Shown here piece by piece: positions 1,181 to 63,526 of a stretch of DNA of 64,000 nt. The position numbers and the translations under genes are program-made. The stretch covers positions 1-64,000 of the forward strand of contig JAIQCW010000312.1 in NCBI GenBank assembly GCA_020283715.1, read 5' to 3'. The DNA comes from Cytauxzoon felis. Lineage: Eukaryota; Apicomplexa; Aconoidasida; Piroplasmida; Theileriidae. Numbering within the stretch: the first letter of the stretch is position 1; the number at the start of each line of letters is the position of its first letter. Under the pieces are notes generated by a model that saw nothing but the letters and a program-made list of their open reading frames with translations, was not told the DNA's origin and did no database searches.

Positions 1181-1475
1181 CCACTTGATGTCCAATCCTA
1201 CTCTCTTTGTCCTGCCGTCAGCTCTTCTATTTAGTTGTCCCTTCGCTTCCCTGAGATCAGCTACGGGTAGTCCACTTCCACTTGAGGTCTGTTCTTCCGG
1301 GTTGATAATATTTCGTTCCTCCGGGTATAAATCGCCACGATCTCTGGGAGTGGCTCTACTCTTTAGAGATAGGTAATTAAAAGAGGCACCACGGCGAGTG
1401 GAACAGTGGTTGTAACCTCAAGTGGAGAGCTGTTTGCAAGATGAAGAAAGGTTGATTGGACCTCAGCTTGTACAT
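1181..1475 (-). repeat. Hairpin-cassette element, intergenic
   Basis: It carries CCACTTGATGT at the left, an end cassette CCTGCCGTCAGCT, a GCT/AGC arm, two spacer units (GTTCTTCCGGGTT, GTTCCTCCGGGTA), and the reverse-complemented GCCAC/GTGGC arm. It ends in CACCACGGCGAGTGG and ACCTCAAGTGG. It is the main content of the gap between 974 and 1529; the rest is plain AT-rich DNA. Confidence 0.85.
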
Positions 1476-1529
1476 ACTTCAATTCGCTCGTCTAGGTTTG
1501 TGTAATGTATAGATGTAAAATATTAAAAT

Positions 1530-2936
1530 TTAGAGTTTGATTTGTTGTTGTAGTAGTATTTTGATATCTTGAAGGATATTGTTATTTTTATTGTTGAGTT
1601 CATTAATGCTTGATGTTCTTGGTGTATCGTGATGTGCTTTGATATGACAAACATTTATATGTTTGATTTGTGTTTCATTATTAAAATCTGATAGAAATTC
1701 ATTTAATGATTTCCAAAACTTAAATTTATCATACGAATTTAATTGTAAATTTGCGATGTTAAATATAAAATCTTTCATTAATGTCAATTTTTCTTCATCT
1801 TCACCCATACATATACATCTCTTAATCTCACATATTATATGAGAACAACATCTCAATAATACATACATATCATCATCCATCAATAAATCACCCATATACA
1901 TATAACCCGAAAGTCCTTCCAATTCCATTCCACCTGAGGTTACAGTCATACACTCCTTCCCACTAGGCGTGGAGGCTTCTACACCTGAGGTCGTCTTGCA
2001 GACAGCTTCTCCACTTGAGGTCCTGCCGTCAGCTTCTCTATTTAGTTGTCCCTTCGCTTCCCTTAGATCAGCTACGGGTTCCACTTGAGGTCCAGTACTA
2101 TTAATCATTCCACTTCCATCTACACCTCTACCTTCACCACGATCTCTGGGAGTGGCATTACTCTTTAGAGATAGGTAATTGGAAGAGCCTCCACGGCGAG
2201 TGGAAGAAGAGTTGGATTTGACCTCAGGTGGGGATGGAATAGAGGAGATATTATGTTTATTGTATGTTTGATTGATTGTTTTATTTGTATTGTATTGTAT
2301 GTTATTTAGTTTATTTTTTAATTTTTTGAGATTATTGATGGGTATGATATTGTATTTGAGATTAAGATAATTATAGATTGTGTCTAGAATAATATGACCA
2401 TATTTTGTATAATGATTGTTAATATAGACATTGATATTGAAGATATTAAGTGTAATTCTGAATATACAACTAGGGAATTTAATACATTTATTACAGATAT
2501 TATAGCATATTCGATGTAAATTAATATCACAATTAGTACCAATAAATTTTTTTTTACCTAAAATAGCTTTAGAATTTAAAATATTATTTGATAATTCATT
2601 AAAGATATTATATAAGAATTTAATTAATTTATTATTATTATTATAATTATTATATAATTTCTTATATGTATAATTAAATAATTGACAATATAATAATAAT
2701 ATACCTAAATCACATGATGATGCTATATAATATTTATTAATTATTTTAGTAAATTGATAAAAATAATTATTATTATATAATATATTATTATTATTTATTA
2801 TTAATTCATTACATAATTTCATTTCATTTATTATTATTATACCTAATAATTTTCTACATAATATTAATTCCATATTATCTATTAATTTATATAATATTGA
2901 TAATAATGGATGTGAATTTATTATATATCCCTCCAT
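1530..2936 (-). CDS. Unknown protein, Asn/Ile/Tyr-rich, with in-frame element
   Basis: This is a 468-residue frame that I do not recognise. Residues 1 to about 230 are asparagine, isoleucine and tyrosine rich, with several Cys near residues 145-165 (CDINLHRICYNICNKCIKFP), which could be a small metal-binding patch. Residues about 236-335 are the translation of a hairpin-cassette element ([18 protein letters not shown] ... [14 protein letters not shown]). The C-terminal part resumes host-like sequence with a Cys/His-containing stretch. The start overlaps the stop of the YqgF-like gene upstream by 16 bases in another frame, so it may be a separate gene or a further exon of that gene. I see no targeting signal. 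Confidence 0.5.
   Translation of the reverse strand: MEGYIINSHPLLSILYKLIDNMELILCRKLLGIIIINEMKLCNELIINNNNILYNNNYFYQFTKIINKYYIASSCDLGILLLYCQLFNYTYKKLYNNYNNNNKLIKFLYNIFNELSNNILNSKAILGKKKFIGTNCDINLHRICYNICNKCIKFPSCIFRITLNIFNINVYINNHYTKYGHIILDTIYNYLNLKYNIIPINNLKKLKNKLNNIQYNTNKTINQTYNKHNISSIPSPPEVKSNSSSTRRGGSSNYLSLKSNATPRDRGEGRGVDGSGMINSTGPQVEPVADLREAKGQLNREADGRTSSGEAVCKTTSGVEASTPSGKECMTVTSGGMELEGLSGYMYMGDLLMDDDMYVLLRCCSHIICEIKRCICMGEDEEKLTLMKDFIFNIANLQLNSYDKFKFWKSLNEFLSDFNNETQIKHINVCHIKAHHDTPRTSSINELNNKNNNILQDIKILLQQQIKL
1930..2231 (-). repeat. Hairpin-cassette element inside coding exon
   Basis: This copy has nested left ends: CCACCTGAGGT, then CCCACTAGGCGTGG, ACACCTGAGGTCG with CTTGCAGACAGCT, and CCACTTGAGGTCC with CCTGCCGTCAGCT. 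A GCT/AGC arm and the GCCAC/GTGGC arm follow, closing with ACCTCAGGTGG. It is open in the host frame. Confidence 0.85.
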
Positions 2937-4234
2937 TTATTATTTATATATTTACATAAATTCTTATATAATAATCTACAATTTGATTTTATATGTGATT
3001 TAAATATTATATTATCACTAGGTAATATCATAAATGAATTGTTTTTTTTTAATTCCATAAAATTCTTATATATATTTATACTTGCTAATATATCCTTACG
3101 ACCTATTATATCATCATCAACTTGATATGTACTATATTGTTCTGTTATACCCAATATTATAAATCTATTCATAAAATCACCATTCAATATTCTAAAATAT
3201 TCTACACAATTACCATTATATATACAACGATCCAATAATAATGTACATGATATACAATTATTTTTCAATTCACCCAATACTGTTTTACACAATATATTAT
3301 TATCACAATATATAGGTTCTATAAATGATGTCCTTTCGTTGTTCTTCCACTCGCCGTGGTGGCATTTTCTATTTAGTTGTCCCTCCGCTTCACGTAGATC
3401 AGCTACGGGTTCCACTTGAGGTCTATTTAGTATATCACGTTCTTCCGGGTTAACAAATTCTGTTGTTCCGGGTAGACTTTTATGTTCTTCGGGGTTGACA
3501 CCTTTTGTTCTTCCGGGTTGATTATCTTCGTTATTCCGGGTTAACAAATTTTGTTCTTCCGAGTTAACACTCTCTGTTCCTCCGGGTAGATTTACCTGTT
3601 CTTCCGGGTATTCACTGCCACGATCTCCGGGAGTGGCTATACTCTTTAGAGATAGCAAATTAGAAGAGCTGACGGCAGGACCAACCTCAGGTGTAGAATA
3701 GTTTGTATTGATATTATTGTATTGAAATAGGAATTTGGTGAGTCTGGTACTGAAATCGAGATTATAGAGTGTTTGGAAGAGTAATTTGGAGTTTGTAGGA
3801 TTATGATATGCTATTGGGAATCCTATAAGGATAATGAATGGTATATTATATTTATATAATTTATTATTAATGATAATGTTATAAATATTATTTATAGTAT
3901 TATTAACATTACCATTATTTATTAAATTATTTTGATATAAAATTTTATTTAAATAATTTAATGTTAATCCAATATAATTACTACCATAATCAATACTTAA
4001 TATACAATAATTATTTATATTTTTTATATCATCTATATTTAATGTATTAGGTAATTGTATTTTTATCCTCTTATTATCATATGTTTTATCATTCATCCAA
4101 TTTATATCCAAACATCTCTTTGATAATCTACCATAATTAAATATTAAATCATTACTTAATGATAAATCCACAGTCTTTATATTATAACCATTTACAATAT
4201 ATAACAAACCCAATATATAATATATATATAACAT
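2921..4234 (-). CDS. YqgF/RuvX-like RNase H-fold protein, probably organellar
   Basis: The 437-residue frame starts with a hydrophobic leader (MLYIYYILGLLYIVNG) that suits a signal peptide, and possibly plastid targeting. Residues 77-90 read CILSIDYGSNYIGL, the first strand and metal-binding Asp of the YqgF/RuvX nuclease fold. FIILIGFPIAYHNPTNSK at about 134 matches the second conserved strand (usually a GLP motif). VDDDIIGRKDILA near residue 375 resembles the third acidic motif. A hairpin-cassette element with long NPEEQ spacers is translated in frame at about residues 180-300, splitting the fold. RuvX-family proteins act in Holliday-junction or rRNA processing in bacteria and plastids. The family call is by motif only. 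Confidence 0.55.
   Translation of the reverse strand: MLYIYYILGLLYIVNGYNIKTVDLSLSNDLIFNYGRLSKRCLDINWMNDKTYDNKRIKIQLPNTLNIDDIKNINNYCILSIDYGSNYIGLTLNYLNKILYQNNLINNGNVNNTINNIYNIIINNKLYKYNIPFIILIGFPIAYHNPTNSKLLFQTLYNLDFSTRLTKFLFQYNNINTNYSTPEVGPAVSSSNLLSLKSIATPGDRGSEYPEEQVNLPGGTESVNSEEQNLLTRNNEDNQPGRTKGVNPEEHKSLPGTTEFVNPEERDILNRPQVEPVADLREAEGQLNRKCHHGEWKNNERTSFIEPIYCDNNILCKTVLGELKNNCISCTLLLDRCIYNGNCVEYFRILNGDFMNRFIILGITEQYSTYQVDDDIIGRKDILASINIYKNFMELKKNNSFMILPSDNIIFKSHIKSNCRLLYKNLCKYINNKWRDI
3347..3700 (-). repeat. Hairpin-cassette element inside coding exon, long spacer
   Basis: It has a CCACTCGCCGTGG end, a GCT/AGC arm, then seven or so spacer units of the GTTCTTCCGGGTTGA type in tandem, then the reverse GCCAC/GTGGC arm and GCTGACGGCAGG end. 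The frame of the YqgF-like gene stays open through all of it, including the expanded spacer. Confidence 0.85.
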
Positions 4235-4364: not shown

Positions 4365-4562
4365 CACTCAACGTTTCTTTCCACTCGCCGTGGTGGCTCT
4401 CCTTATTTACTTCCCCCTCAAGCTCCCGTAGATCAGCTGCGGGTAGTCACTTGAGGTCCAATCACTAACCTCTCACAGCCACGATCTCTGGGAGTGGCTT
4501 TACTCTTTAGAGATAGGTAATTGGAAGAGCTGTCTGCAAGACGACCTCGGGTGGAGAGCTCT
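4365..4562 (-). repeat. Hairpin-cassette element, intergenic
   Basis: A CCACTCGCCGTGG end and a GCT/AGC-type arm without spacer are followed by the reverse GCCAC/GTGGC arm, AGCTGTCTGCAAG and ACCTCGGGTGG. It fills most of the gap 4235-4625, upstream of two divergent gene ends. Confidence 0.8.
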
Positions 4563-4958: not shown

Positions 4959-6071
4959 ATGGATGAATATTTAAAACCAGCTAATGAACGTGAATGGAGA
5001 ATATTTGAAAGACATTTTAGCCGTTGGTTATCTGATAATGCATATACATTAACATCTGAAGAAGGAAGACCATTTAAAAGGGCATCAATATTATGCCTAG
5101 GTGCTGGTATTACAACTACGATTTGTAGCAATTTATTATTAAATAAATTTAAAAATTTAAATAAAGTCACCAGAAGATTATTCTCAGCATTCACTGGATT
5201 ATATGCAACAGTATTCACCATTAATAGGCAACGAAGAGAAATCTACTCGAAGGTATACCAATAAACAATCTACATACAATTATATCAAGTTCAATCCATT
5301 CTCCTCTACCTGAGGTCGAATCTACCTCTTTTCCACTCCTACCTTTCGTCGTCTTGCAGACAGCTTTCTCTATTTACTTCCCCTTCCAGCTCCCGTAGAT
5401 CGCTTCCAGGTATTTCCACTTCCACCTGAGGTTACATCACTAACTGTCCGTTCTTCCGGGTTGACATTCTCTGTTCCTCCGGGTAGAATTCCTGTTCTTA
5501 GGGGTAGACAAACCGAGGATGATCCACGGGAATCCGAGGGGAGGTAAATAGAAAAGCTGACGGCAGGACTGACCTCAAGTGGAGAAGCTCCATGCAATGG
5601 AAAAGATGGACCTCAGGTGGTAAAGCTGAGGGCAGGACTGGGAACATGTGGAGAACAACATATCGATCATGATATTTTTTATTATTCTTTATGATTATTA
5701 ATATTTATAGTTGTTGACTACGGATGGTCCGGCTGGTAAGGCATCTAGGAGTATAATGAAATCTACTCGTGAATTATTGAATTCTGGTGAAAAAAGTACG
5801 AATTTATATTTACCGAATGTAAATATTTTGAATAATGTTTGTTGAAATTCAATTTATTATAGAAATTATAGGAATCCATTAACGAATTGGATAAGAATAA
5901 GGATGTTCAAAGGTAATTTTAATAAAACTTAATACTGAAAAATTTTTATAGTGAAAATCTATGGTCAAATGTCGGTATGAAATTAAAGAAATTATTTTTT
6001 ATATATTTTTTCATTTAATATATTTAGGAAATTTTAAAACTTGGGATGATATTAGGAATGATAATAAATAA
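4959..6071 (+). CDS. Unknown small membrane-associated protein, five exons
   Basis: I reconstruct exons 4959-5252, 5711-5818, 5872-5912, 5952-5974 and 6028-6071; all junctions are GT-AG and keep phase. The protein is about 170 residues. Residues 47-60 (SILCLGAGITTTIC) form a hydrophobic stretch that could be one membrane span, followed by a basic region (NRQRREIYSK) and a polar tail ending in KTWDDIRNDNK. The last three introns are about 40-55 nt, typical for this genome. The first intron is 458 nt because it carries a hairpin-cassette element. No family recognised; exon structure is better supported than function. Confidence 0.55.
5306..5655 (-). repeat. Hairpin-cassette element in intron 1 of the 4959 gene
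   Basis: It begins CTACCTGAGGTCG, has a CTTGCAGACAGCT end, an AGC/GCT arm (CCAGCTCCCGTAGATCGCTTCC), spacer units, a reverse GGAT/ATCC arm, and several end modules (GCTGACGGCAGG, CTCCATGCAATGGAA). It is antisense to the host gene and supplies nearly all of the extra intron length. Confidence 0.85.
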
Positions 6072-6134: not shown

Positions 6135-7175
6135 CTACATTTTTATATTTTCCCCCATAAATAGATGATTGTATTTTGTTTTAAATTCATTATAATTGAA
6201 TTCGTATGATGTATGATTGAATTGATATACCCATTTGTACATATTGAAATCTGTATAGAATTTGATAGTATTTTCGAGTACATTTTGAGCATTATTTTTG
6301 GTTAAGTCCAGTGTATTAATTATATCACCCCTTAATAATATAAGATTTTTACTATATAAAAGTTCATCAAATATAGTCATAATAAAATATGGTTCAGAAT
6401 TTTCTAGACCCTTAGCCTTAAATGAATGCAAAGATGTACATAAAATACTCTTTGGTGGGGTATATTGTAATATTAAATTATAAAAAGCACCATATCCTTT
6501 ATCAATTGGTAATATAAATATTGGTGATTTCTTAAGATTTTCCATCAATAATTTAAATATATCACCAGAAATATCCATAGTAACAACATCATTTCTCCCT
6601 GAAAATTGCTCTTTCCACATCTCACGTATAATAAATGGATCCCTCTGCTGCAACAATTGAACCTTTGCAACCTCATTCAATACCTTCGGAACAGGATAAG
6701 TAAATGTAGAGTAATTAAATATACCACGAAATTGACCATATATACACATAGGTCTTACAAACGACATCATTCCATTCCACCTGAGGTCGTCTTGCAGACA
6801 GCTTCTTTTATTTATTTTCCCCTCCGCTTCCCTGAGATCAGCTATGGGTGTTCCACCTCCACTTGAGGTTATATCACTACATCTGCCACGATCTCTGGGA
6901 GTGGCTCTACTCTTTAGAGATAGGTAATTAGAAGAAGGCTCCACGCCTAGTGGAACAGTGGTTGTAACCTCAGGTGGAGAGCTGTCTGCAAAACCTCGAG
7001 TAGAATACATTGTGGGAGAATCTATGGTAGATGCGGCAGAATGCAAGATAGATGATATGAACTGCGATGGAAAACCTTTGGTACGACTGCGATAAACATG
7101 ATTATAGAATTTATGTACTATATTTCTATTTATTTTCCTTAGATTATGATCTAGAAAAGTGATAAATATTGTCAT
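6135..7175 (-). CDS. ATP11: ATP synthase F1 assembly factor 1 (ATP11/ATPAF1)
   Basis: The 346-residue protein chaperones assembly of the mitochondrial F1-ATPase by holding the beta subunit. ATP11 family features are visible in order: an entry motif YPVPKVLNEVAKVQLLQQRD, then IIREMWKEQF, the strand SPIFILPIDKGYGAF at about 225, and EPYFIMTIFDELLYSKNLILLRG-type sequence at about 275, followed by a final helix ending in FYTDFNMY. The basic N-terminus suits a mitochondrial transit peptide. A hairpin-cassette element is translated in frame at about residues 65-135, between the transit region and the conserved domain, where an insertion is likely tolerated. Length without the insert is near the usual 280-320. 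Confidence 0.75.
   Translation of the reverse strand: MTIFITFLDHNLRKINRNIVHKFYNHVYRSRTKGFPSQFISSILHSAASTIDSPTMYSTRGFADSSPPEVTTTVPLGVEPSSNYLSLKSRATPRDRGRCSDITSSGGGTPIADLREAEGKINKRSCLQDDLRWNGMMSFVRPMCIYGQFRGIFNYSTFTYPVPKVLNEVAKVQLLQQRDPFIIREMWKEQFSGRNDVVTMDISGDIFKLLMENLKKSPIFILPIDKGYGAFYNLILQYTPPKSILCTSLHSFKAKGLENSEPYFIMTIFDELLYSKNLILLRGDIINTLDLTKNNAQNVLENTIKFYTDFNMYKWVYQFNHTSYEFNYNEFKTKYNHLFMGENIKM
6777..7002 (-). repeat. Hairpin-cassette element inside ATP11 exon
   Basis: CCACCTGAGGTCG with the CTTGCAGACAGCT end, a GCT/AGC arm, no spacer units, the reverse GCCAC/GTGGC arm, then CCACGCCTAGTGG and ACCTCAGGTGG. It is open in the host frame as [18 protein letters not shown] ... [13 protein letters not shown]. 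Confidence 0.85.
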
Positions 7176-7188
7176 TTCTCCCGGAAAT

Positions 7189-7584: not shown

Positions 7585-10500
7585 ATGTTACTTTACATTA
7601 AAAGATATTTCGGAAATGCAGTAAAGCTTAAAGACTTTGTAAAGGTACCAATCCATTACCAAAACAGTAAAGAACTTCTCAACACAATCATTACAGGTAT
7701 GTTTAACAAATAAGAGTAGTGTTATGAAGAAATTTAACGACTGAAATGTTGTCTGCTCAACCTGAGGTTAAAACTGCACGTTGTCTTGCAGACCGTTCTC
7801 CCTTTTATTTCTCCCCCAAACTCCCGGAGATCATGGGAATGATGGAAGATGATGCTAAGGATGTGTTGGATGTAACCTCAGGTGGTACCCGCAGCTGATC
7901 TCAGGGAAGCGAAGGGGGAGGTAAATGGAGAAGCTGACGGTAGGATTGTCTTCAGTTGTAAGGCGGGTTATAAATGGTCTCTATATTCCAGCTATATTCA
8001 CTGCAATTGCGGAAATTGAAGATGTAAGAAATAAACTAGCTAAAGGACATGATGAGAGTAATGCTACACAATCAGCATTTGCTAAGCTTAAACCTACTGG
8101 TGGTAATAGTGGATGGGCTGCAGGTACATGGGCGGATGCTGTTATAACTAATTGTAAGACGGTTGTCTACAATGTGAACCAGGTGAATTAAAAGTTGATA
8201 AACCTGGTATGGCGAAAGCTATCTATAATCGGGGTGCTAATACTTATAAAGGTACTGAAACGGATACTGTTGACAATGTTGAGATACGCATAGATAAAAC
8301 AAATGGATATTTATCCGGTACCATACAGGTTTATGATAGTAGTGGTCAACCCAATGATACTAAGAATAAAAATATTTCAGTTAGTGAAACACTGGATACT
8401 CCATTCCATTTAATAAGAATCTATACGCATTACTATTATAAATTCGTGTCAGGTGCTGATGCCCAATTCATAAAAATGAACAATAGTGGAATGTCATTTA
8501 AAAATAGAGGAAGCCCAATTACTGGTATAAATGTTAGTAATAATGTCAAATATGTCTACGTATATCATTTCGGTGGTATACCGATATTAGTTTGTGCGAT
8601 TGTAGAAGAGAGCAGTACAACAAAGTACAAATACTTTCGACCTGATGGTCCATATAAACATCCTTTTGAGAAAACTACATGGACTCCGATACCAAATGGT
8701 TCTGGAGCTGGTCAACTCGATGAGAATGAACACCCTAATGGTGCAAATAACAAGGGTAAACTACCTAATATATTAAGGGAACAATATGGAAATATAATTT
8801 TCTATTATGTTCTCTTCATCACTGTTATTAGACGAGGCTGACAATGGAACTGGACATAAACATACATTAGGGCCTGGAGGAACTGGTCCAGGGAATTATG
8901 GGAAATTAGTAAATGATGATGGAGATGACAATGGAGTTGAGAAGGCTAGAAGAATTTTAGAGGATGGAGAAACTACACTAAAAGTTACTTCTGCTTGGAA
9001 TAACGGTAGAGATGAATGGACACAAAATGCCACCCATAAAACTGGTATTAATGATAAACTTACTGATGTTACCAACGCATCCTCTACCGAAGCTCAAAAC
9101 AAAGTTAGCTTGGCTGAAACTGCTATTCAAGGAGCTATAGGTGGTCTTAAGACTACTTCCAGTACAGAAAAGGATGCAGCCAAAGCAATACTTGAGAATG
9201 CGATAAATAATATTGACGGTATAGGTACTCGTACATCTCCTGATAAAGCTTTTCCTCACAGCCCAAGGAATTGGAAGCCTAATAGCTCTTTTACCGAAGG
9301 TAATAGATGGCAGTGGCATTTAATTGGTTCGATTTCTGGTTTTCCACACATGATTTGTAAATCACCATTTTCATGGAATCCATAGGATTCGCAGGAGCAG
9401 GCGCGCAAATACAACACGATGCCGGTGAAGGTGAAGATAAACCATTTTTGAAGGAGGGTACTATTACTAAACAATCTGGCACAATAAATTTTAAAGATGG
9501 TGCATTCAATGATGATATGACTTAGCATTTCCTGTTCTTCCTGGTAGATATTAAACCGGGGATCATCTACGTGAATCCTAGGGGGAGGTAATTGGAAGAA
9601 GGCCACCATGGCGAGTGGAAGATATGATGGAGAGTATCAGCAGTATTTATCTTATTGATTTAACTAATGATATATGATCAATGTTTGAATATATTGAAAC
9701 CTACATATGCGGATTTTAATGTCTTGTCCATGTTCCACTCGTCAAATAAAACCAAGGCTGACAAATTGTTTAATAATACTAATAATAATGAACTTACTGC
9801 TAAAACTGGTGATGAAGATGCTCTTAATGCCAAGAAGGTAATTAGTTGGGGGAATGCTTGGACTATAACGGGGATCCTTAATCATGAAACCGCAGGTGTC
9901 GCAAAGAGACTTGGTGATTTTAAAGACCTTTGGAAGGAAAAAATTCCAGCAGCTAAACATGTTATGATCGCTAGTATTGTAACTTTAAGTACATTTGACT
10001 TTTTTTTAATTTCTATATTAATTTTCGGATTGATTACACTTGGGCTTTTAGACTTGTATCACTCGGAGGTCCTCAATAATATAAAGAATTGTGCCATTTA
10101 CTTCGCATTTGTCACAATTCTACCCATCTTTGCCGGCGTCCTAATCGCCAACCATAATGAAAAGGCGAATTTGAATATAAGTAAAATATATCTGAAGATT
10201 TCTGGAACTGGTAATGATGGTCAAACTTTAACTATTACTACTCCTAATGCAGTTACAGCGGCAGACGCTAATATGATTAAAATTGATAGAATTGTTAAAA
10301 GCGATGGCACAGACGATACGACTAAAGCGGATATTGCTAATGGTCTCAAGGTTGACGATATAGTTAGAAGTAATGGTGTGGCTGCCTTGGGAATTGGGTG
10401 TCTTTTGTTGGTTCTATTCTTCGTTCTGATATTTTCTATCGCACTTTATAAGATGACACCAGAATCTCTCACAGCTCCTCTCTTCCTATTTACTTTCATT

Positions 10501-15725: not shown

Positions 15726-15968
15726 TCCACCTGAGGTCATCTTTTCCATTGCATGGAGCTCTTCCAATTACCTATCTCTAAAGAGTAAAGCCACTCCCGG
15801 AGATCGTGCCGAAGTTAAGGATGGATCATCCATCATGGGAATGATGGAAGATGGTTCTAAGGATGTGTTTGATGGAACCTCAAGTGGAACACCCGAAAAC
15901 GATCTATGGGAGTTTGAGGGGGAAGTAAATGGAAGAGCTGACGGCAGGAATGACCTCAGGTGGAGTTC
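15726..15968 (+). repeat. Hairpin-cassette element, intergenic, with AAC/GTT arm
   Basis: CCACCTGAGGTC, TCCATTGCATGGA end, GCCAC/GTGGC arm, the module GGATCATCCATCATGGGAATG, and a reverse arm with AAC/GTT stems (AACGATCTATGGGAGTT), then GCTGACGGCAGG and ACCTCAGGTGG. It lies after the helical-repeat gene; the gap 15626-16137 holds nothing else that I can support. Confidence 0.85.
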
Positions 15969-16024
15969 AAGGTGATGTATGTATATGGTTGACTTTTGAT
16001 TTAATAATGAGTTTATATATTTAT

Positions 16025-50127: not shown

Positions 50128-50400
50128 AACTGAAGTCCAATCACTATATGTTCCACTCGCCGTGGCGGCTCCTCTATTTACTTCCCCCTCCGCTTCCCTG
50201 AGATCAGCTACGGGTACTCCACTTGAGGTCCTATGACTATACTTCCGCCACGATCTCCGGGAGTGGCATTACCGTTTACGGGGAGAGAATTGGAACAGCT
50301 GACGGCAGGACGAAGAGAGGTTGGACCGTTGGTAGAGGTAACCTTAGGTGGAGAGCTGTCTGCAACACGAAGAGAGGTAGATTGGACTTCAGTTGGAACT
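50128..50400 (-). repeat. Hairpin-cassette element, intergenic (CCGT/ACGG version)
   Basis: CCAACTGAAGTCC, CCACTCGCCGTGG, GCT/AGC arm, CCACTTGAGGTCC, reverse GCCAC/GTGGC arm with CCGTTTACGG, GCTGACGGCAGG, ACCTTAGGTGG and AGCTGTCTGCAAC. It lies just after the VPS54 stop. Confidence 0.85.
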
Positions 50401-50434
50401 GTGATTGATTTTTATATAAGACATGATAATGAAA

Positions 50435-53400: not shown

Positions 53401-54495
53401 AATTACCTCCCCTTCCAGCTCCCGTGGATCGCTTCCAGGTAATCCACATCCACTTGAGGTTACATCATCATTAACTTCCTGTTCTTCTGGGTTGACATTC
53501 TTTGTTCCTCCGGGTAGAATTCCTGTTCTTAGGGGTTGATTATCTTCGTTCTTCCGGGTAGAAAATTCCTGTTCTTCCTCATTAACTTCGCCACGATCTC
53601 CGGGAGTGGCTATACTCTTTAGAGATAGGTAATTGGAAGAGCTGTCTGCAAGACAAGGAGAGGTGGACTGGACCTCAGGTGGAACATCTGATAGAGAGAC
53701 TTTACGTTTGTTAGATGAATCTTCGATGGAGAAGCTGTTTGAATGGCAGTTAGATATGGAAGGGCTTTCAATTGAAATGCGATTGGAATTAGTACTGAGG
53801 TGTATATATATATCTTTGATATTATTGATGAACACAAATGTATTGGTGAATTGATCTTTGAGTTCATTAACACAATTTAAAGATTGATTAACATCATTGA
53901 GATGTGTACCAACTAAATCTCTTAATTGTGTATTTACTATAGTCAACTGTAATTCCAAATTGGCTAAAGAATTTGGAATCTCATCAATATCTAAATTGAA
54001 GATGTTGTTTTTACTAATTTTATAGTCATCTCTAAAGTATTCATTAGATACAGAAAGTAGATTGTCATTAAAGTCTTCAATAACTTCATCATTAGATGAC
54101 GAATTATTATTACGTACTTTTAAATCATCTTCCAAATGATTCAATTGATTGATGTACAATATGAAATCTGATTCTTCTACTTTGGGTATTTTCAATTCCT
54201 TTAATGATTTTACAAATTCATCATCAATAGGATCATTTTTATTACCTTCTATAAATAAATCTAGTAAATATCTATTGCCAGAACTAATATCATCTATTGA
54301 AGCCTTGCTTAAAAATTTGGGATGTCCCCAATCTATAGATGCCACCGTTGTTATGTTAGTAGTCACATCGTAGTTTATCAAATCTTCATCCAATATATAA
54401 TAAGATTCATCATCTTCAATTTCCTCTATATTATCTTCTCTTTCAATTCCAGGATCAATTATACTCTTTAAAAATGATGGCATCAAGTTGACCAT
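50435..54495 (-). CDS. VPS54: GARP-complex subunit VPS54-like, three in-frame elements, one apparent frameshift
   Basis: VPS54 tethers endosome-derived vesicles at the trans-Golgi. The first frame (54495-52852) has NEYFRDDYKISKNNIFNLD, similar to the VPS54 signature VP.iFf..dF.l..p.tF, followed by long helices (LANLELQLTIVNTQLRDLVG). The second frame (to 50435) continues with KLLCIDLLYQNGNYNPTKLL and helical repeats ending CTTIKLEIFAFAEALSNELS. The frames meet near 52893 at an A-run (coding ACTAAAAAGAAATAT); one base fewer would join LLYTKK to EIYFNNIFNDNNKLL, so this looks like a slip or sequencing error. Three elements are translated in frame (53345-53690, 52205-52570, 50950-51345). The family call rests on the N-terminal motif and architecture. 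Confidence 0.5.
50950..51345 (-). repeat. Hairpin-cassette element inside VPS54 exon, copy 3
   Basis: CCACCTGAGGTT, CCTGCCGTCAGCT, AGC/GCT arm, CCACATCCACTTGAGGT, six spacer units, reverse GCCAC/GTGGC arm, GCCTCCACGGCGAGTGG. Nearly identical over about 250 bp to the copy at 52205. Confidence 0.9.
52205..52570 (-). repeat. Hairpin-cassette element inside VPS54 exon, copy 2
   Basis: CCACCTGTGGTT, CCTGCCGTCAGCT, AGC/GCT arm, the same spacer order as copy 3, reverse GCCAC/GTGGC arm with GAGTGGCTATAC in place of GAGTGGCTTTAC, and GCCTCCACGGCGAGTGG. Confidence 0.9.
53345..53690 (-). repeat. Hairpin-cassette element inside VPS54 exon, copy 1
   Basis: CCACCTGAGGTC, CCACTTGGCGTGGTGCC, AGC/GCT arm and the same spacer run as copies 2 and 3, then a reverse GCCAC/GTGGC arm and AGCTGTCTGCAAG. 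The ends differ from copies 2 and 3 while the middle is nearly identical. Confidence 0.9.
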
Positions 54496-55155: not shown

Positions 55156-58100
55156 ATGTTTGATTATTTGGCTCATATGTGCCTAACTAGTAGTAGTATA
55201 CCACCGGATTTGAAAGAGTATAATAAAGATTTCTTAAAATCGAAATATGATGAAATAATTTCTGAAGGTGATTTTGATCTATCATATAGATTATCAAAGC
55301 TTTTGATATCAAAGTGTAATTCATATAATGTAAAATCATTGATAAAGTTTTCTAGATTAGATTTACGTGATAAGAGGGTTTTAGTTCATTATAAAGTTAA
55401 TATTTTACAATTATTGATGGTTATATCTAGATCTTATGAATATAATTCATTATTGATCGCTAAATCTGGATTGTTGAAATATGTATATGAATTTGCATTA
55501 TTATCTCGTACTGGTACAAATGATGGTATAAATTATTTACCATTGGGTTCTAATTATAGTACGTTGGTTGAATCATCATTAAATCTGATCCAGACATTAT
55601 CCAACGTTAATTCTTATGGTAAATTGACTGAGAATTCTGTACCATTTGGGATACGTCTTTTAATATCAAAAGCTATGAAATTGAAGAAGAAATTGAAAGC
55701 TGAAGGAATATTATATATGATTGACCCATTGAATTTACAATTAAATCGTGGTTCAGATTATGATACTTTAGGGGGAAGTTCAGATATTATGCAAGTACTC
55801 TCAATAGAAACTAGAATAAGCCAATTACAAACTGATGTAATGAATGTTGAAGATGAAATGTATACCCTTAGTTTATTTGATACTGGAACAATAGATAGTT
55901 TTAAATGTGGAGAATTATTAAGTAAACTTGGATTATATGAACATCAAGCAAGATTATTAATTGAACATTGCCTTGATAATGAATATACCCCGGATTATAA
56001 TACAGTATCTGAATTATATGAACATATAAAGTCACTATCCTCATTATGTGTATCCAGAAATGAAGAAAATTTACAATCCGACCAAGAATCAATACAGAAT
56101 CCTAACAACTCAATAGATTTTGAATCAAATCATACAAATGTAATTGTCAATGAGTCATGTGATATAGTATCTTCAACATCTCTTCCTCTTTCACATGAGG
56201 TTACAGCCTCGAGTTCTCCTGCCGTCAGCTCTTCTAATTACCTCCCCGTAAACGGTAATACCACTCCCGGAGATCGTGGCGATGTCAACCCGGAAGAACA
56301 GGAATTTTATTCCGAAGAACAAACTTCAAGTGTAGTAGATGTAACCTCAAGTGGACTACCCGCAGCTGATCTACGGGAAGCGAAGGGGGAACTAAATAGA
56401 GAAGGCTGTCTGCAAGACGAAGATAAGGATATAACATCAAGTGATCTACCCGAAAGTGATCTCAGGGAACTTGAGGGGGAAGTAAATAGAGAAGGCACCA
56501 CGCCTAGTGAGAAGACCTCAAGTGGAGAAGCTCCATGTAATGGAAAAGAAGAAGATACAGAGGAGTTGGTGGATCTAACCTTAAGTGGACTACCCGCAGC
56601 TGATCTCAGGGAAGCGGAGGGGGAAGTAAATAGAGGAAGCTGTCTGCAAGACGAAGATAAGGTTGTAACTTCGGGTGAAACTTCTACTGTAGAATATGGA
56701 CCTCAGATGGATGTTCATGTTTTGACAAGTCATTTAGAAAGTGGAATGGAACAATCTGTTGAATGTGATGATGAATTGTTTATGGATAAAAGTTCATATT
56801 CATGTTCATTGTCATCAAAATCATGTGATATTTTGAATGACGTTGAGGTATTTGCTATGATTGATGAAATATTACACGCTGATGATACTGAAGTTGTAAA
56901 AGTGACTGGAGATTATACTTATTTAACTCAGGATGAAGTTCAATCAACTGAAGATGCCTTTGTGGAAGTTACACCAGTTCATCATGAACACGAAGTGGAT
57001 GAAGATAATGAGAAATCATCTGTCAAAAAAACACATCATCTTGTTGGTGATTTGGAGGATTCTACAGTTGTTGAATATACTTCATCTGATGATACTGAAG
57101 TTGTAAAAGTGACTGGAGATTATACTTATTTAACTCAGGATGAAGTTCAGCCAACTGAAGATACTCATCTAATTCCACATACAGGTGGAGCAAAATCTAT
57201 TGATAACAGTTGTATTGAGTGTGTTTCTTCAGAACAAGAATCATCTAGAACTGAAGTATTTTCTACCCCTAGATCATCCATAGAAAATACATATCCAACC
57301 TTTTATCACCTTTCAGATAGCTCATCATTCGAAGATTCCTCTATCAAAGGTCTATCATTCGTTCCACCTGAGGTTACCTCTACTGTATGTCCAACCTCTC
57401 TTCCACTCGCCGTGGAGGCTTCTTCTAATTATTTATCCCCAAGGGGTGAAGCCACTCCCGGAGATCGTGGCGGAAGTGAAGTTAGTGATGGATCATCCAT
57501 CATGGGAATGATGGAAGATGGTGCTAAGGATGTGTTGGATGTAACCTCAAGTGGACTACCCGCAGCTGATCTCAGGGAAGCGGAGGGGAAAATAAATAGA
57601 GGAGGCTGTCTGCAAGACGAAGACAAGGATGTAACCTCAAGTGGATGTGTTAATGATGACATACATGTAGAGTCTTTATGTGAGGATGAATTGATTACTA
57701 TGCCGACTAATATAAGTATACCACCATCGGAGATATCTACAGATTATAATGGTTATCCATTATATAAGAATGTCCCAACAGATGATGAATTGGATAATAT
57801 GTTAGATAAGATGATAAATATGGTACAGGATAATTTATCGTGTATAGATATAAAATTGGGATTGAAAGAGGATAATAAAAATAAAATTGATGATTTCAAT
57901 GCTATTGAGGTTATTGTTAATAGTATGCCAAATTTATATACCAAACCGGTAATAAAATTAATGGATGATAAAAATTATTATTATAATTCAGAAGATGGTA
58001 ATAATGCCTTCAGTTCATCTCATGGATCTTCTAATTCATCACAAGTCCATGAACTAATGCTAAATGGTGGCAATTCATTATATAAAAATAACATTGTCGA

Positions 58101-59220
58101 TATCAAATTCTATAAAGAATTAGAATACGGTCACAAATGTCTCAAAATTAATATCAAAATTGAAATCATTAATACATGTCATTCAAAACTAACAGAATTC
58201 AATACTGATTACTCAGATTTCGAAAATTTCCCACTCAATCTCATAGTAAAACAAACACAAATCTTCAAACATAAAAAGAATTCCATTGCTACCAGAACGA
58301 AAACAGCTAACAAACAGTCACCTATCAAAGATCAATACAAACCCTTTTACACTAACATCCAGACAAATCATTCTGATTATTATCCACCTGAAGCCCAATC
58401 CACCTCTCTCCCACTCGCCGTGGAGGCCTCTTCCAATTATCTCCCCGTAAACGGTAATGTCACTCCCGGTGATCGTGGCGAAGATAGTGATGGAATGAAG
58501 AGTAGTACTGGACCTCGAGTGGAACCCGTAGCTGATCTACGGGAAGCGGAGGGGGAAGTAAATAGAGAAGCTGTCTGCAGGACGACCTCAGGTGGTGCTG
58601 TCTGTAAGACGACGAAAGTTGGAGTTAATAATATAACCTCAAGTGCAACAATGGGATCTTCGAAGGATATGGATGATGCTGACATGGTAGATTTAGGTGA
58701 TTCATGTGTTATAAATTTCCAATTATGTGGTTATGCTCCTTATAAGGGTTTACCGAAGGTGATATTATCATTTAATATAGGTGATGATCGTCAATATTTA
58801 TCACTATACTTACCATTGCCAGTGACGTCTTTCTTTATACCTAGCTTGGACTATGGATATTTGAACAATTCCGATTACACAACGTCATTGAATATCCAGA
58901 ATATATTGCGTAATAAGGTTTATTTCAATATAAATACAAAATTTCCATACAATAAAGTTATAAAAATCGCAACACTTGATGGTAAATTTAAAATAATTGA
59001 CGATAATAAGGATGATACTTGTGTATATCTTATCTCTACATTTTATACTTCATATACCGCTAAATTTACTCAAAATATTCAAGACGATAGGAATATCTGC
59101 AAATTTACAGTATTTTGCATGATAGAAAGGAAGGATTCATCAATAAATTTACACGTATCATCAGAGTCATATACACTCGCGAATGCTGTCGCTACACTAT
59201 ATAAGTATCTGTTACAGTAA
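55156..59220 (+). CDS. Adaptor-like trafficking protein with element-built hinge
   Basis: A single 1,354-residue frame. Residues 1-300 are helical (FDLSYRLSKLLISKCNSYN, YKVNILQLLMVISRSYEYNS), in the style of a VHS/ENTH-type solenoid. The C-terminal 180 residues (GDSCVINFQLCGYAPYKGLP, ILSFNIGDDRQYLSLYLPLP, then VTSFFIPS) resemble the appendage platform of clathrin adaptors, where LPLP..KFF is typical. The long middle is acidic and disordered, and much of it is translated hairpin-cassette sequence (about residues 345-515, 735-835 and 1075-1160), plus two copies of DDTEVVKVTGDYTYLTQDEV. I infer a GGA- or adaptin-like role; I am not sure. No intron is visible. Confidence 0.45.
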   Translation: MFDYLAHMCLTSSSIPPDLKEYNKDFLKSKYDEIISEGDFDLSYRLSKLLISKCNSYNVKSLIKFSRLDLRDKRVLVHYKVNILQLLMVISRSYEYNSLLIAKSGLLKYVYEFALLSRTGTNDGINYLPLGSNYSTLVESSLNLIQTLSNVNSYGKLTENSVPFGIRLLISKAMKLKKKLKAEGILYMIDPLNLQLNRGSDYDTLGGSSDIMQVLSIETRISQLQTDVMNVEDEMYTLSLFDTGTIDSFKCGELLSKLGLYEHQARLLIEHCLDNEYTPDYNTVSELYEHIKSLSSLCVSRNEENLQSDQESIQNPNNSIDFESNHTNVIVNESCDIVSSTSLPLSHEVTASSSPAVSSSNYLPVNGNTTPGDRGDVNPEEQEFYSEEQTSSVVDVTSSGLPAADLREAKGELNREGCLQDEDKDITSSDLPESDLRELEGEVNREGTTPSEKTSSGEAPCNGKEEDTEELVDLTLSGLPAADLREAEGEVNRGSCLQDEDKVVTSGETSTVEYGPQMDVHVLTSHLESGMEQSVECDDELFMDKSSYSCSLSSKSCDILNDVEVFAMIDEILHADDTEVVKVTGDYTYLTQDEVQSTEDAFVEVTPVHHEHEVDEDNEKSSVKKTHHLVGDLEDSTVVEYTSSDDTEVVKVTGDYTYLTQDEVQPTEDTHLIPHTGGAKSIDNSCIECVSSEQESSRTEVFSTPRSSIENTYPTFYHLSDSSSFEDSSIKGLSFVPPEVTSTVCPTSLPLAVEASSNYLSPRGEATPGDRGGSEVSDGSSIMGMMEDGAKDVLDVTSSGLPAADLREAEGKINRGGCLQDEDKDVTSSGCVNDDIHVESLCEDELITMPTNISIPPSEISTDYNGYPLYKNVPTDDELDNMLDKMINMVQDNLSCIDIKLGLKEDNKNKIDDFNAIEVIVNSMPNLYTKPVIKLMDDKNYYYNSEDGNNAFSSSHGSSNSSQVHELMLNGGNSLYKNNIVDIKFYKELEYGHKCLKINIKIEIINTCHSKLTEFNTDYSDFENFPLNLIVKQTQIFKHKKNSIATRTKTANKQSPIKDQYKPFYTNIQTNHSDYYPPEAQSTSLPLAVEASSNYLPVNGNVTPGDRGEDSDGMKSSTGPRVEPVADLREAEGEVNREAVCRTTSGGAVCKTTKVGVNNITSSATMGSSKDMDDADMVDLGDSCVINFQLCGYAPYKGLPKVILSFNIGDDRQYLSLYLPLPVTSFFIPSLDYGYLNNSDYTTSLNIQNILRNKVYFNINTKFPYNKVIKIATLDGKFKIIDDNKDDTCVYLISTFYTSYTAKFTQNIQDDRNICKFTVFCMIERKDSSINLHVSSESYTLANAVATLYKYLLQ
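56195..56700 (+). repeat. Three joined hairpin-cassette copies inside exon
   Basis: Left: CCTGCCGTCAGCT, a GCCAC/GTGGC-type arm with CCGTAAACGG, spacer units. Then three successive right arms: GCT/AGC, AGT/ACT (AGTGATCTCAGGGAACTT) and GCT/AGC, each preceded by ACCTCAAGTGG-like motifs and followed by an end cassette (CTGTCTGCAAGAC, CACCACGCCTAGTG, CTCCATGTAATGGAA, CTGTCTGCAAGAC). Confidence 0.85.
57355..57650 (+). repeat. Hairpin-cassette element inside exon (CCCC/GGGG version)
   Basis: CCACCTGAGGTT, CCACTCGCCGTGGAGGC, arm with the second hairpin as CCCCAAGGGG, GCCAC/GTGGC... , the module GATGGATCATCCATCATGGG, ACCTCAAGTGG, reverse GCT/AGC arm, CTGTCTGCAAGAC. Translated [18 protein letters not shown]. 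Confidence 0.85.
58383..58640 (+). repeat. Hairpin-cassette element inside exon (CCGT/ACGG version)
   Basis: CCACCTGAAGCCC, CCACTCGCCGTGGAGGC, arm with CCGTAAACGG, ACCTCGAGTGG, reverse GCT/AGC arm, AGCTGTCTGCAGG, ACCTCAGGTGG. Translated SSNYLPVNGNVTPGDRGE. Confidence 0.85.
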
Positions 59221-60032: not shown

Positions 60033-60290
60033 TTCTACCTGAGGTCCAATCCTACTCTCTTGGTCTTGCAGACAGCTTCTCTAATTACCTATCTCTAAAG
60101 AGTAGAGCCACTCCCGGAGATCGTGGCTGAAGTCTAGTCATTGGACCTCAAGTGGAATACCTGGAAGCGATCCACGGGAGCTGGAAGGGGAAGTAAATAG
60201 AGAAGCTGTCTGCAAGACGACCTCAGGTGGAACGACGAGTGGAAAGGAATGTAGAGTGGAAGATAAGGTTACAACTTCAAGTATGTCAAC
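60033..60290 (+). repeat. Hairpin-cassette element, intergenic
   Basis: CTACCTGAGGTCC, CTTGCAGACAGCT, GCCAC/GTGGC arm, ACCTCAAGTGG, reverse AGC/GCT arm, AGCTGTCTGCAAG, ACCTCAGGTGG. Very similar to the copy at 41408 in module order, although in a different setting. Confidence 0.85.
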
Positions 60291-61754: not shown

Positions 61755-62022
61755 CCACCTGAGGTCCAATCCTACCCTTCATTCCACTAGCCGTGGTGCC
61801 TCCTCTATTTACTTCCCCCTCCGCTTCCCTGAGATCAGCTGCGGGTTTTCCACTTGAGGTCCAATCACTACCTTCCTGTTCTTCCGGGTTGACATCTTTT
61901 GTTCCTCCGGGTAGATTTCCTGTTCTTAGGGGTAGACATCGCCACGATCTCTGGGAGTGGCTATACTCTTTAGAGAGGTAAATAGAGAAGCTGACGGCAG
62001 GACTGACCTCAGGTGGAAGTGA
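61755..62022 (-). repeat. Hairpin-cassette element, intergenic
   Basis: CCACCTGAGGTCC, CCACTAGCCGTGGTGCC, GCT/AGC arm, CCACTTGAGGTCC, three spacer units, reverse GCCAC/GTGGC arm cut short (CTCTTTAGAGAGGTAAATAG), GCTGACGGCAGG, ACCTCAGGTGG. The rest of the gap 61456-62188 is AT-rich and shows nothing else. Confidence 0.85.
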
Positions 62023-62188
62023 AATCAGGTATTGAATATGGATGGGAATGTATTAAGATATTAATTTTTGATGTAGATTATTGTGGTTGCTATAAAAACT
62101 TCATTTTTCTGAGTTTAAAATTATGAATGGTTATGATATGAATTTACTTACCGTCATAGATGGATATTTTATTGAAGACAGCAGAATA

Positions 62189-63526
62189 TTAATTTTTATC
62201 CTTTTTATTATATTCTTGTAATTTTTGTTTAGCTAATTTTAATTGTAATTGTGCATCTTGATTATTTGGATCAATTGTTAAGAGTTTATTAAGATCATCA
62301 ATAGCATCTTTTAATGAATCATTATAAATTCTAGCAACAGCACGTCTATATAAACCTTTAATATTATTTGGATCAAGTAATAATGCTTCTGTAGCATTAT
62401 TTTCAGCACTAAGATAATTTTTTGTCTTAATATAACAATTTGATAAATTCAAATGACATTGAATTTTTGTCAAATCTGATGCATTCTTTTCATCATCTGT
62501 CCAATCATCACGCATAGATAAATAACGTACACCATCTTCATATAATGTTATAGCTGCACCTATATTACCCTTTGTAAATTTCGAATTACCATCCAATTTA
62601 GCATCAATAGCCGCCTGTATCTTCTCATCTGTTGTCATCTCCCACTTCTCTTTAGGCTTTACACGAGAATTTATCAATTCAATATCAAACTATAATTATA
62701 ATATCATACCACATCAATATAACAAATCAATACAATATTGTCTACTCCACCTGAGGTTACAGTCCTACACTTCTTTACACCTGAGGTTACAACCTTATTT
62801 TCCTCTTGCAGAGAGCTTCTCTATTTAGTTCCCCTCGGATTCCCGTAGATCATCCTCGGTAAAATGTATACCCGGAGGAACGAAAAAAATATCTACTTGG
62901 AAGAACAAAAAAGTTTAATCCGGAAGAACAGACATTAACATCGCCACGATCTCTGGGAGTGGCTATACTCTTTAGAGATGAATAATTAAGAGAGCTGTCT
63001 GCAAGACGAAGAGAGTTGTATTGGACCTCAGGTGGAGTGAATAATACCTCAGTCACTGTGTTTATGTGATAACTAACATTCAATACTGAGTTCGGTGGTA
63101 TGGAATCTCCTGCTCCTTTTTCTCCATAACCGTATTCTGGTTGTATTTTCTGTATTTATTATTAATAAAGATATCTGGACATACAAAAGAGGCTTTTTCA
63201 CCGATTTTCATGGTTGCAACACCTAAATCCCAGCCTTTGATGACATTTCCAGCACCCAAAATGAATTTGAATGTTGTATTACGGTTATCTGATTGATTAT
63301 GGATTCATTTTACTATGGAATCTTGCACTTACATGATGAATCAAAAACTGTTCCTGAATCCAATGTTCCAGTATAATGAACTTCAACTTCATGACCTTGT
63401 GCTGGTCTTTAATATAAAAATTAATATTACTATAGTAATTATGACTTACAATTCATCAAATTCTGATTCCTTTAGTACTGTCTTTACTACTCCTCCGTCA
63501 CCGGTCAAATCTACTGGTACTGCCAT
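62189..63526 (-). CDS. FKBP-type peptidyl-prolyl isomerase with TPR domain (FKBP35-like)
   Basis: Exon 1 (63526-63450) MAVPVDLTGDGGVVKTVLKE, exon 2 (63406-63333) PAQGHEVEVHYTGTLDSGTV, then FILGAGNVIKGWDLGVATMK, then PEYGYGEKGAGDSIPPNSVL: the FK506-binding fold with its conserved VHYTG, VIKGWD and IPPN motifs. The last exon (to 62189) has tetratricopeptide repeats (CHLNLSNCYIKTKNYLSAEN, ALLLDPNNIKGLYRRAVARI) that usually bind the HSP90 C-terminus. Junctions keep phase. A hairpin element fills the intron between the isomerase and TPR parts, exactly at the domain border. Apicomplexa normally have one FKBP with this layout. Confidence 0.85.
62748..63050. repeat. Hairpin-cassette element of mixed orientation in FKBP intron
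   Basis: CCACCTGAGGTT, CACCTGAGGTT, CTTGCAGAGAGCT, GGAT/ATCC arm with spacers in + sense (CCCGGAGGAAC), but then the reverse GCCAC/GTGGC arm instead of the usual right arm, AGCTGTCTGCAAG and ACCTCAGGTGG. The GCCAC-type arm can therefore stand in either position. Confidence 0.85.

What the first reader, a model, noticed from the sequence alone, without database searches (positions are those of the whole stretch)
1181..63050. Dense family of modular hairpin-cassette elements, about 50 copies in 64 kb
The same GC-richer modules recur across the whole window in intergenic, intronic and exonic DNA: ends CCACNTGAGGT / ACCTCANGTGG, four kinds of end cassette (CTTGCAGACAGCT, CCTGCCGTCAGCT, CCACTCGCCGTGG, TCCATTGCATGGA), two arms in inverted order and a spacer of GTTCYTCCGGGT units. 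Modules are mixed freely between copies. No transposase-like gene is visible, so the family would be non-autonomous or depends on a factor elsewhere. I know of no described nuclear element in piroplasms with this layout; that is a statement of my knowledge, not of a search.
Basis: partly seen in the sequence, partly recalled or inferred. Interest (0 to 1): 0.95.

Follow-up and report, generated by a model that had tools for sequence, protein, structure and literature searches.

The report
Modular hairpin elements invading protein genes
Thousands of short, GC-rich, hairpin-forming DNA elements built from interchangeable parts are scattered through this small, probably piroplasm, nuclear genome, and the copies that sit inside protein-coding exons are almost always in the one orientation and reading frame that keeps the protein open, so they appear to add repeated segments to ordinary cell proteins.

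Summary
The window has 51 arm-bearing elements. The assembly (8.62 Mb) has 7,082 exact CCACNTGAGGT ends (backwards control 1) and 2,509 exact copies of the L-arm hairpin 19-mer (control 0), scaling to about 4,200 elements. In 239,787 bases read, elements fill 13%.

Grammar: E> x< L> (or R<) spacer E< R> y> E<. End cassettes x and y assort freely. Local hairpins carry compensatory changes. Termini form an inverted repeat; 46 complete copies show no target-site duplication.

Where at least 70 open codons flank both sides on the element's sense strand, 33 of 34 copies are in frame and stop-free, including copies in THOC2, an ATP11 gene and a DEAD-box helicase. Other copies lie in introns.

Best reading: a non-autonomous mobile hairpin family that spreads by an unidentified activity, is shuffled by recombination, and is tolerated in exons because one frame stays open, as in Rickettsia palindromic elements, but nuclear. 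Mobility and translation are inferred; no empty site was found.

The parts
1181..1440 (-). element a< E> c< L> s> s> E< R> b> E<, outside long ORFs
1930..2231 (-). element E> c< L> E< R> b> E< a> E< c> E<, in frame inside ORF 1530-2936 (-)
3347..3694 (-). element E> b< L> s x8 E< R> c>, in frame inside ORF 2921-4240 (-)
4381..4554 (-). element E> a< L> E< R> c>
5306..5636 (+). element E> a< R< E> s< s< R> b> E< d> E< b>, in an apparent GTATAC...TTTATAG intron, frame broken
   Evidence: intron read by eye
6777..6992 (-). element a< E> c< L> E< R> a> E<, in frame inside the ATP11-domain ORF 6135-7208 (-), upstream of the matched part of the domain
7758..7944 (+). element E> a< R< (ATCATGGGAATGAT spacer) E< R> b>
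9534..9618 (+). partial element s< R> c>
11748..11979 (-). element E> c< L> E< R> c> E<
12516..12806 (+). element E> E> a< R< E> s s s R> E<
13133..13327 (-). element c< L> E< R> c> E<
13679..13886 (+). element E> b< L> E< R> d> E<
14648..14904 (+). element E> R< s> s> E< R> c> E<
15727..16153 (+). element E> d< L> E< R> b> E< s< s< s<
16713..16827 (-). partial element E> a< L>, in frame in ORF 16138-17655 (-)
17124..17180 (-). partial element s> R>, in frame in ORF 16138-17655 (-)
19735..19835 (-). partial element R> c> E< d>
21404..21506 (+). partial element E< R> b> E< a>
22061..22315 (+). element E> a< R< E> s< R> c> E<
22713..23012 (+). element E> d< R< s s s E< R> c> E<
23718..23976 (-). 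element E> E> c< L> E< R> a> E<
26335..26558 (+). element (a or b)< R< s s s E< E< R> a>
27293..27566 (+). element E> b< R< E> s s s R> E<
27934..28039 (-). partial element c> c< L>
28282..28476 (-). element E> b< L> E< R> b> E<
29368..29744 (+). compound element c< R< s s s E> E> b< L> E< R> c> E<
31182..31276 (+). partial element (a or b)< L> E<
32092..32260 (-). element c< L> E< R> b> E<
32592..32719 (-). partial element E> c< L> s> E<
33471..33758 (-). element E> E> c< L> E< R> c> s> s>, in frame in ORF 33315-34040 (-)
35621..35709 (-). left half of a long-spacer element (R arm, c cassette); AT-rich spacer follows
36154..36308 (+). right half (E< R> b> E<) of the long-spacer element
37896..38297 (-). 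element E> b< E> c< L> s s s E< R> a> E< E<
39435..39710 (-). element in frame inside the THOC2 ORF 38268-41021 (-), aa 437-529
41452..41678 (+). element E> d< L> E< R> a> E< c> E<
42413..42618 (+). element E> b< L> E< R> c> E<
43008..43255 (+). element E> a< L> E< E< R> a> E<
43985..44366 (-). compound element E> a< E> b< R< E> s s s R> a> E< L>
45248..45408 (-). partial element E> E> c< L> s>
46197..46474 (+). element E> a< L> E< R> c> E< b> E<
47234..47493 (+). element a< L> E< R> d> E< a> s> E<
50153..50366 (-). element a< E> b< L> E< R> c>
50953..51301 (-). element in frame in ORF 50435-52900 (-), Vps54-like below Pfam cut-off; 97% identical to 52206-52514
52209..52540 (-). element in frame in ORF 50435-52900 (-)
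53364..53682 (-). element in frame in ORF 52852-54510 (-); 88% identical to 50940-51330
56191..56710 (+). compound element with three R arms, in frame in ORF 55138-59220 (+)
57310..57644 (+). element in frame in ORF 55138-59220 (+)
58411..58646 (+). element in frame in ORF 55138-59220 (+)
60035..60230 (+). element E> a< L> E< R> a> E<
61755..62016 (-). element E> b< L> s s E< R> c> E<
62747..63035 (-). element E> a< L> s< s< s< R> a> E< E<

Best explanation
A nuclear, non-autonomous, hairpin-based mobile element family. A unit runs from YTCCACYTGAGGTY to its inverted copy and holds two arms (L: hairpins with loop TAAA and with stem CCAC/GTGG; R: hairpin with loop GATCTNNGGGA and non-standard G.A oppositions), end cassettes and a spacer. 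Shown: copy number, grammar, free assortment of cassettes, compensatory changes in local stems, no detectable target-site duplication, and the rule that copies with open flanks on both sides lie in the sense orientation and in the single open frame. Inferred: that units were copied to new sites by an activity recognising the ends or hairpins (enzyme unknown), that recombination between copies at shared junctions swaps modules, that exonic copies are translated, and that they persist because the one frame reads through the whole unit while insertions in the other five frame/orientation combinations are lost.
For: About 4,230 elements by scaling 2,509 genome hits of the L-hairpin 19-mer by 145 elements per 86 hits in the 240 kb read. 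Symmetric ends with nearly unordered flanks, 70 left and 92 right ends. Free assortment 26 of 81 against 25.1. R stem: standard pairs in 144, 145 and 145 of 151 copies at three positions, using TA/CG, CG/GC/AT and GC/AT; over four positions 456 of 604 pair in register against 13/302, 71/453, 38/604 and 96/604 in shifted registers. L hairpin: 81, 84, 85 of 85, with CTC/GAG, CCG/CGG and CCC/GGG stems around TAAA. Folding z mean -3.9 (sense) and -4.8 (antisense), 80 elements, 15 shuffles each. Open flanks of at least 70 codons on both sides, sense strand: 33 of 34 in frame and open. One near-identical pair, 97%, has homology that, read by eye, starts and ends at the element's ends. Stem variants change the encoded residues (R: REAEG, RELEG, WEFEG; L: SLKS, PVNG) while pairing is kept, so base pairing looks more constrained than the peptide.
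Against: No clean empty site: the paralogue screen of the 240 kb gave 2 blastn candidates and 176 tblastx HSP pairs that reduced to 5 listed cases; two were looked at in sequence, one an element inside an intron, one an AT-rich low-complexity match, the others judged by coordinates only. No target-site duplication in 46 complete copies. No mobilising gene identified: one ORF with RVT_1, no rve, no Y1 transposase; most DDE families and tyrosine recombinases not searched. Long-range pairing is barely coupled within elements (arms, 50 elements, permutation p 0.15; outer ends, 63 elements, p 0.03, or 0.11 with wobble). No recent burst: of blastn hits of at least 100 bases in the sample, non-element hits included, 10 reach 93% and 2 reach 97%. 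Density is uneven: 0 elements in 20 kb of C140, although C140 carries the assembly's only close V-ATPase A match. Open flanks are a proxy for exons: among random 230-base windows with open flanks 1,253 of 1,787 are open through.
Confidence: 0.6

Rival explanations
1. Passive amplification: the hairpins are multiplied by host replication slippage, template switching at palindromes and gene conversion, with no dedicated mobility enzyme; modules spread piecemeal by homology at the shared junctions.
For: No target-site duplication, no enzyme found among three families searched with working controls, strong module mosaicism, and in the one young pair a 39-base insertion bounded by a shared CGAGTGGA, read by eye.
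Against: Dispersal is genome-wide with little excess similarity of near neighbours: mean identity 0.711-0.723 in every distance class, though pairs of at least 95% are 1.9% of 104 pairs at 0.5-1.5 kb against 0-0.4% elsewhere; complete units with both defined ends recur in unrelated flanks.
Confidence: 0.22
2. Host-used sites: the hairpins are binding sites or structured RNA/DNA parts used by the cell (chromatin, replication, RNA processing) and are kept by selection.
For: Conserved hairpin loops and compensatory stems; at R positions p1-p4 wobble G.T 19 against A.C 3, as expected for RNA on the sense strand, though related copies are not independent.
Against: No strand bias of folding energy (sense lower in 42 of 80, p 0.49); large variation in make-up and half units; one 20 kb region has none. 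A position rule relative to genes was not tested.
Confidence: 0.12
3. Introners: the elements are spliced out as introns, so exonic copies never reach the protein.
For: E> contains GAG|GT and E< contains CAG|GT or AAG|T (sequence); copies inside long ORFs are in the sense orientation.
Against: 33 of 34 copies with open flanks are in frame and stop-free, which splicing would not require; the two introns read here that contain copies have their own GTATAC/GTATGT and AG sites outside the element, whereas E> offers GTY.
Confidence: 0.04
4. A repetitive protein domain family that spread through coding DNA by duplication, the non-coding copies being pseudogene debris.
For: Exonic copies encode recurring peptides, and the exonic share, 36 of 145, exceeds the 15.1 expected if one in six exonic insertions is tolerated.
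Against: 109 of 145 copies did not meet the exonic test. Differences from consensus at codon positions 1/2/3: type-1 R 29/7/17 in 20 exonic and 67/27/42 in 64 other copies (third position, Fisher p 0.86); L 18/10/24 in 16 and 51/36/57 in 40, not tested. Stems covary across codons.
Confidence: 0.02

Closest known systems
Rickettsia palindromic elements (RPE), bacteria
   Same: About 150 bp palindromic elements, ten families, often inside unrelated genes in frame as translational fusions (PMC10969869, passages seen).
   Different: RPEs are bacterial, 44 integrations reported there for R. conorii; here a eukaryote genome, thousands of copies, with freely assorting cassettes. No sequence link seen: the L-hairpin 19-mer has 10 single hits in 257 Gb of prokaryote genomes (chance gives 7-8 by my own estimate) and 1 in viral contigs.
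Yeast mitochondrial GC clusters (GC42)
   Same: GC-rich hairpins in AT-rich DNA, stems more conserved than loops, merger and shuffling of units, RNA-mediated copying suspected (PMC4478555, passages).
   Different: Mitochondrial, 42 nt, flanked by AG or ACT repeats resembling target-site duplications; here nuclear, typically 200-400 bp, no duplication detected.
Short palindromic repeats of Volvox organelles; repetitive hairpin elements of sponge mitochondria
   Same: Selfish hairpins in intergenic and intronic DNA; in Volvox the loop is TAAA or ATTT (PMC2670323 passages; PMC2800124 abstract and outline).
   Different: Organellar; the nuclear copies in Volvox (about 0.06%) are held to be inert transfers. 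The shared TAAA loop is at most analogy.
MITEs
   Same: Short, high copy, terminal inverted repeats, no protein of their own recognised.
   Different: No target-site duplication and no transposase found; modular interior; PMC9141347 (passages) found no class II transposons in 64 apicomplexan genomes and discarded its MITE candidates.
Introners
   Same: Up to more than 2,000 copies per genome in genes, one example with TIRs but no TSD (PMC9860276, passages).
   Different: Here exonic copies stay open and in frame, which splicing would not require.

Membership tests
MITE / non-autonomous DNA transposon | terminal inverted repeats | tested here: met
   YTCCACYTGAGGTY at both ends, 70 left and 92 right ends
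MITE / non-autonomous DNA transposon | target-site duplication | tested here: not met
   46 complete elements, k 2-8, offsets 0-5 outward; largest excess 5 observed against 1.8 expected
MITE / non-autonomous DNA transposon | transposase source in the genome | tested here: inconclusive
   rve and Y1_Tnp absent with controls ringing; other DDE families not searched
MITE / non-autonomous DNA transposon | empty sites | tested here: inconclusive
   no clean case among paralogues in 240 kb; no relatives available
Rickettsia palindromic element | in-frame presence inside unrelated protein genes | tested here: met
   33 of 34 sense-strand cases; THOC2, ATP11, DEAD helicase; translation itself not tested
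Rickettsia palindromic element | palindromic hairpin | tested here: met
   local hairpins and folding z
Rickettsia palindromic element | sequence membership in a bacterial RPE family | tested here: not met
   exact 19-mer only: 10 scattered single hits in prokaryote genomes, none titled Rickettsia; RPE sequences themselves were not compared
Yeast mitochondrial GC cluster | flanking AG or ACT duplication | tested here: not met
   no excess of shared 2-8-mers
Introner | element boundaries act as splice sites | tested here: inconclusive
   sequence speaks against: exonic copies open and in frame, the two introns read use outside sites; no RNA data
Helitron | Rep/helicase source | tested here: inconclusive
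   PF14214 silent, but the control rang nowhere
SINE / RNA-copied element | reverse transcriptase source | tested here: inconclusive
   one 1010-codon ORF with RVT_1, telomerase not excluded

The most novel reading that the evidence does not exclude
A new class of nuclear mobile element, assembled from hairpin cassettes joined at CCACYTGAGGT junctions, copied without target-site duplication by an unknown (possibly RNA-based) activity, which has kept one reading frame open through the whole unit and so colonised exons, adding segments to perhaps a thousand places in proteins (36 of 145 scaled to the genome estimate) of a parasite genome thought to lack such elements.
Probability: 0.3. Interest if true: 0.95.

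Novelty: new variant of a known kind. Interest (0 to 1): 0.85.

Why it matters
Survey work reports no class II transposons in Apicomplexa and no transposable elements in C. felis, T. parva, T. annulata and T. orientalis (PMC9141347, passages). If this assembly is a piroplasm, an estimated 4,200 elements, filling about an eighth of the DNA read, change that picture. In-frame insertion on this scale, including one copy that ends just before the matched part of a DEAD-box Helicase_C domain, would be a nuclear counterpart of Rickettsia palindromic elements and a direct source of new protein segments. It also makes testable how much structured insert conserved proteins tolerate, and what moves hairpins without a known transposase.

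Tried and rejected
Protein search for the element peptides and for the ATP11 ORF found nothing; since an ORF with a strong ATP11 domain also found nothing, that database may lack such eukaryotes and the negative says little. Rfam scan of the window: no family. Long-range pairing of L with R and of outer ends: hardly coupled within elements, so a single large folded unit is not claimed. Strand of action: wobble asymmetry favours sense RNA, folding energies show no bias, so left open. Local spreading: no clear distance effect. Contamination as the reason for element-free C140: the V-ATPase A fragment has one full match (C140) and four partial ones at 28-36%, so C140 is taken as part of this genome. 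A 99% identical 335-base tract between two paralogues ends at an element but is not a clean empty site. L-arm codon statistics used a wrong frame and were redone. In one search the piece between the two elements of the DEAD helicase had no Pfam hit on its own, so the claim that the second element lies within the C-terminal domain rests on the right-hand match starting at profile position 42-47 of 110, and is an inference. The cluster of that element as first drawn ran on into gene sequence by a chance d-like match; its E< ends at residue 559. That the multigene family at 8158-11705 is Tpr, and the names proteasome-type ATPase, V-ATPase A subunit and telomerase, are recalled or inferred from domains, not tested.

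Full report
Observation. Profiles of the two arms built from the sequence and run over 239,787 bases of the same assembly (stretches of six contigs, the window's included) find 160 R arms and 96 L arms in 145 clusters, 31,330 bases or 13%; 51 clusters are in the window. For the short motifs, reversed-sequence controls are near zero; the arm profiles had no such control. Whole-genome counts: end motif 7,082 (control 1), L-hairpin 19-mer 2,509 (control 0), R 20-mer 2,043 (control 0), and 250 places with both ends 150-180 bases apart (the pattern is symmetric, 250 on each strand; control 0). Scaling the 19-mer count gives about 4,230 elements. The distribution is uneven: C158 67, C4 38, C100 16, C170 15, C120 9 and C140 none in 20 kb, although C140 carries the only full match to a V-ATPase A fragment in the assembly.

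Anatomy. In the orientation in which the unit can be read as protein the layout is E> x< L> spacer E< R> y> E<, with R< able to replace L>. E is CCACYTGAGGT, part of a longer end YTCCACYTGAGGTY that is the same on both sides, while flanks beyond it show little order apart from a weak C five bases out. x and y are drawn from four cassettes independently: same in 26 of 81, expected 25.1. The spacer is a run of GTTCYTCCGGGT-type units, an ATCATGGGAATGAT hairpin stretch, or one of at least two AT-rich blocks of roughly 290-330 bases that recur at about 80% identity (lengths by eye). Local hairpins covary. Of 160 R arms 156 were long enough and 151 could be anchored on the loop GATCTNNGGGA: the first three stem positions are standard pairs in 144, 145 and 145, through several pair types, and the register is specific. 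A G.A opposition follows in 149 of 151. Of 96 L arms 94 were long enough; 85 could be anchored on the TAAA-type loop and pair in 81, 84 and 85, as CTC/GAG, CCG/CGG or CCC/GGG; 90 could be anchored on the second loop and pair in 89, 90, 90 and 87 at CCAC/GTGG. Most of the variation is between a few stem types, so independent changes are fewer than copies. Elements fold better than shuffles on both strands, z -3.9 and -4.8, 80 elements of 151-321 bases. Pairing between the two arms, or between the outer ends, is hardly better within an element than between elements, which fits shuffling of modules.

Exons. Read from the sequence, L and R together leave one of six frames open. Of 121 elements of at least 101 bases, 32 lie in ORFs with at least 40 open codons on each side; all 32 are read in the same orientation, and one is also open the other way. 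Without requiring an open element, 38 of 145 have open sense-strand flanks of 50 codons on both sides and 36 of these are in frame and stop-free; at 70 codons it is 33 of 34. On the other strand the figures are 7 cases with 1 open, and 1 with 0 open. As a baseline, of random 230-base windows with open flanks 1,253 of 1,787 are open through: uninterrupted coding DNA behaves so, whereas a unit dropped in at random would fit one frame and orientation in six. Hosts include THOC2 (Pfam THOC2_N 55 bits; the element lies between two matched parts of that domain, profile 30-199 and 508-627), an ATP11 gene (76 bits; element upstream of the matched region), a DEAD-box helicase with two copies, the second ending at residue 559, just before the Helicase_C match that starts at residue 564 and profile position 42 and holds the LHG motif, and an ORF with three. 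Elsewhere copies lie in introns: in an AAA ATPase gene on C100 that looks proteasomal a copy sits in an intron that begins GTATGT and ends TTTAG, outside the element. The exonic share, 36 of 145, is below the 59.5 expected if every exonic insertion were tolerated, given 41% of 17,260 random sites in ORFs, and above the 15.1 expected if one in six were (p 7e-7); loss of non-coding copies or a preference for transcribed DNA could both do this. Differences from consensus by codon position do not differ between exonic and other type-1 R arms (Fisher p 0.86); for L the third-position share is 24 of 52 in exonic and 57 of 144 in other copies, untested. I see no clear sign of selection on the peptide. 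Stops in the reading frame: R 0 of 20 exonic and 4 of 64 others, L 0 of 16 and 2 of 40. Translation itself is inferred; no RNA or peptide data were available.

Origin and movement. 46 complete units show no target-site duplication. One pair in a Vps54-like gene (below Pfam cut-off) is 97% identical, and the homology begins and ends, by eye, at the element ends, with different flanks. Neighbours are otherwise little more alike than distant copies. A paralogue screen gave no clean empty site. The genome has one ORF with RVT_1 and no rve or Y1_Tnp match; the Helitron search is uninformative. Mobility is therefore the best inference from copy number, ends and dispersal, not a demonstration.

Comparison. 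The behaviour is closest to Rickettsia palindromic elements and to mitochondrial GC clusters, and the layout to no family I found. Ten literature searches, of which I saw the top of each listing, showed no description of such an element in a piroplasm; most subscription papers and all bioRxiv preprints were outside the library. The survey of apicomplexan mobile elements found none in C. felis, T. parva, T. annulata or T. orientalis and discarded MITE candidates.

Noticed in passing
window 8158-11705; 67 matches in G000: Member of a multigene family with hydrophobic parts; resembles Tpr of Theileria from memory, not tested. Query 9664-10884 has 67 matches in the assembly, itself included.
   Followed up: partly
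C4:22099-22433 (L014) and C4:48797-49131 (L016): 335-base tract 99.1% identical between two paralogues, ending in the second at an antisense L arm after which the reading frame stops 37 codons on; looks like a gene-conversion tract.
   Followed up: partly
C4 about 35350-35770, 46540-46950, 62035-62445, 67560-67950, 69270-69700; C100 10768-11160; C120 18522-18930: AT-rich spacer block of about 290 bases recurring between R arms at about 80% identity; possible independent cargo.
   Followed up: partly
window 35700-36040; C158 87107-87526; C4 57036-57475: A second AT-rich spacer block, with GGGATAAAAAACACT-like sequence near one end.
   Followed up: no
window 55138-59220: The 1360-codon ORF with three elements also holds a repeated DDTEVVKVTGDYTYLTQDEVQ segment unrelated to the element.
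   Followed up: no
L021-L022 (C140:1-20000): 20 kb without a single element in a genome averaging about one per 2 kb; holds a V-ATPase A fragment and an ORF with a sub-threshold AP2 match.
   Followed up: partly
G000:C56:73693-74436: The only RVT_1 matches found in the assembly, two in one 1010-codon ORF, possibly telomerase.
   Followed up: no
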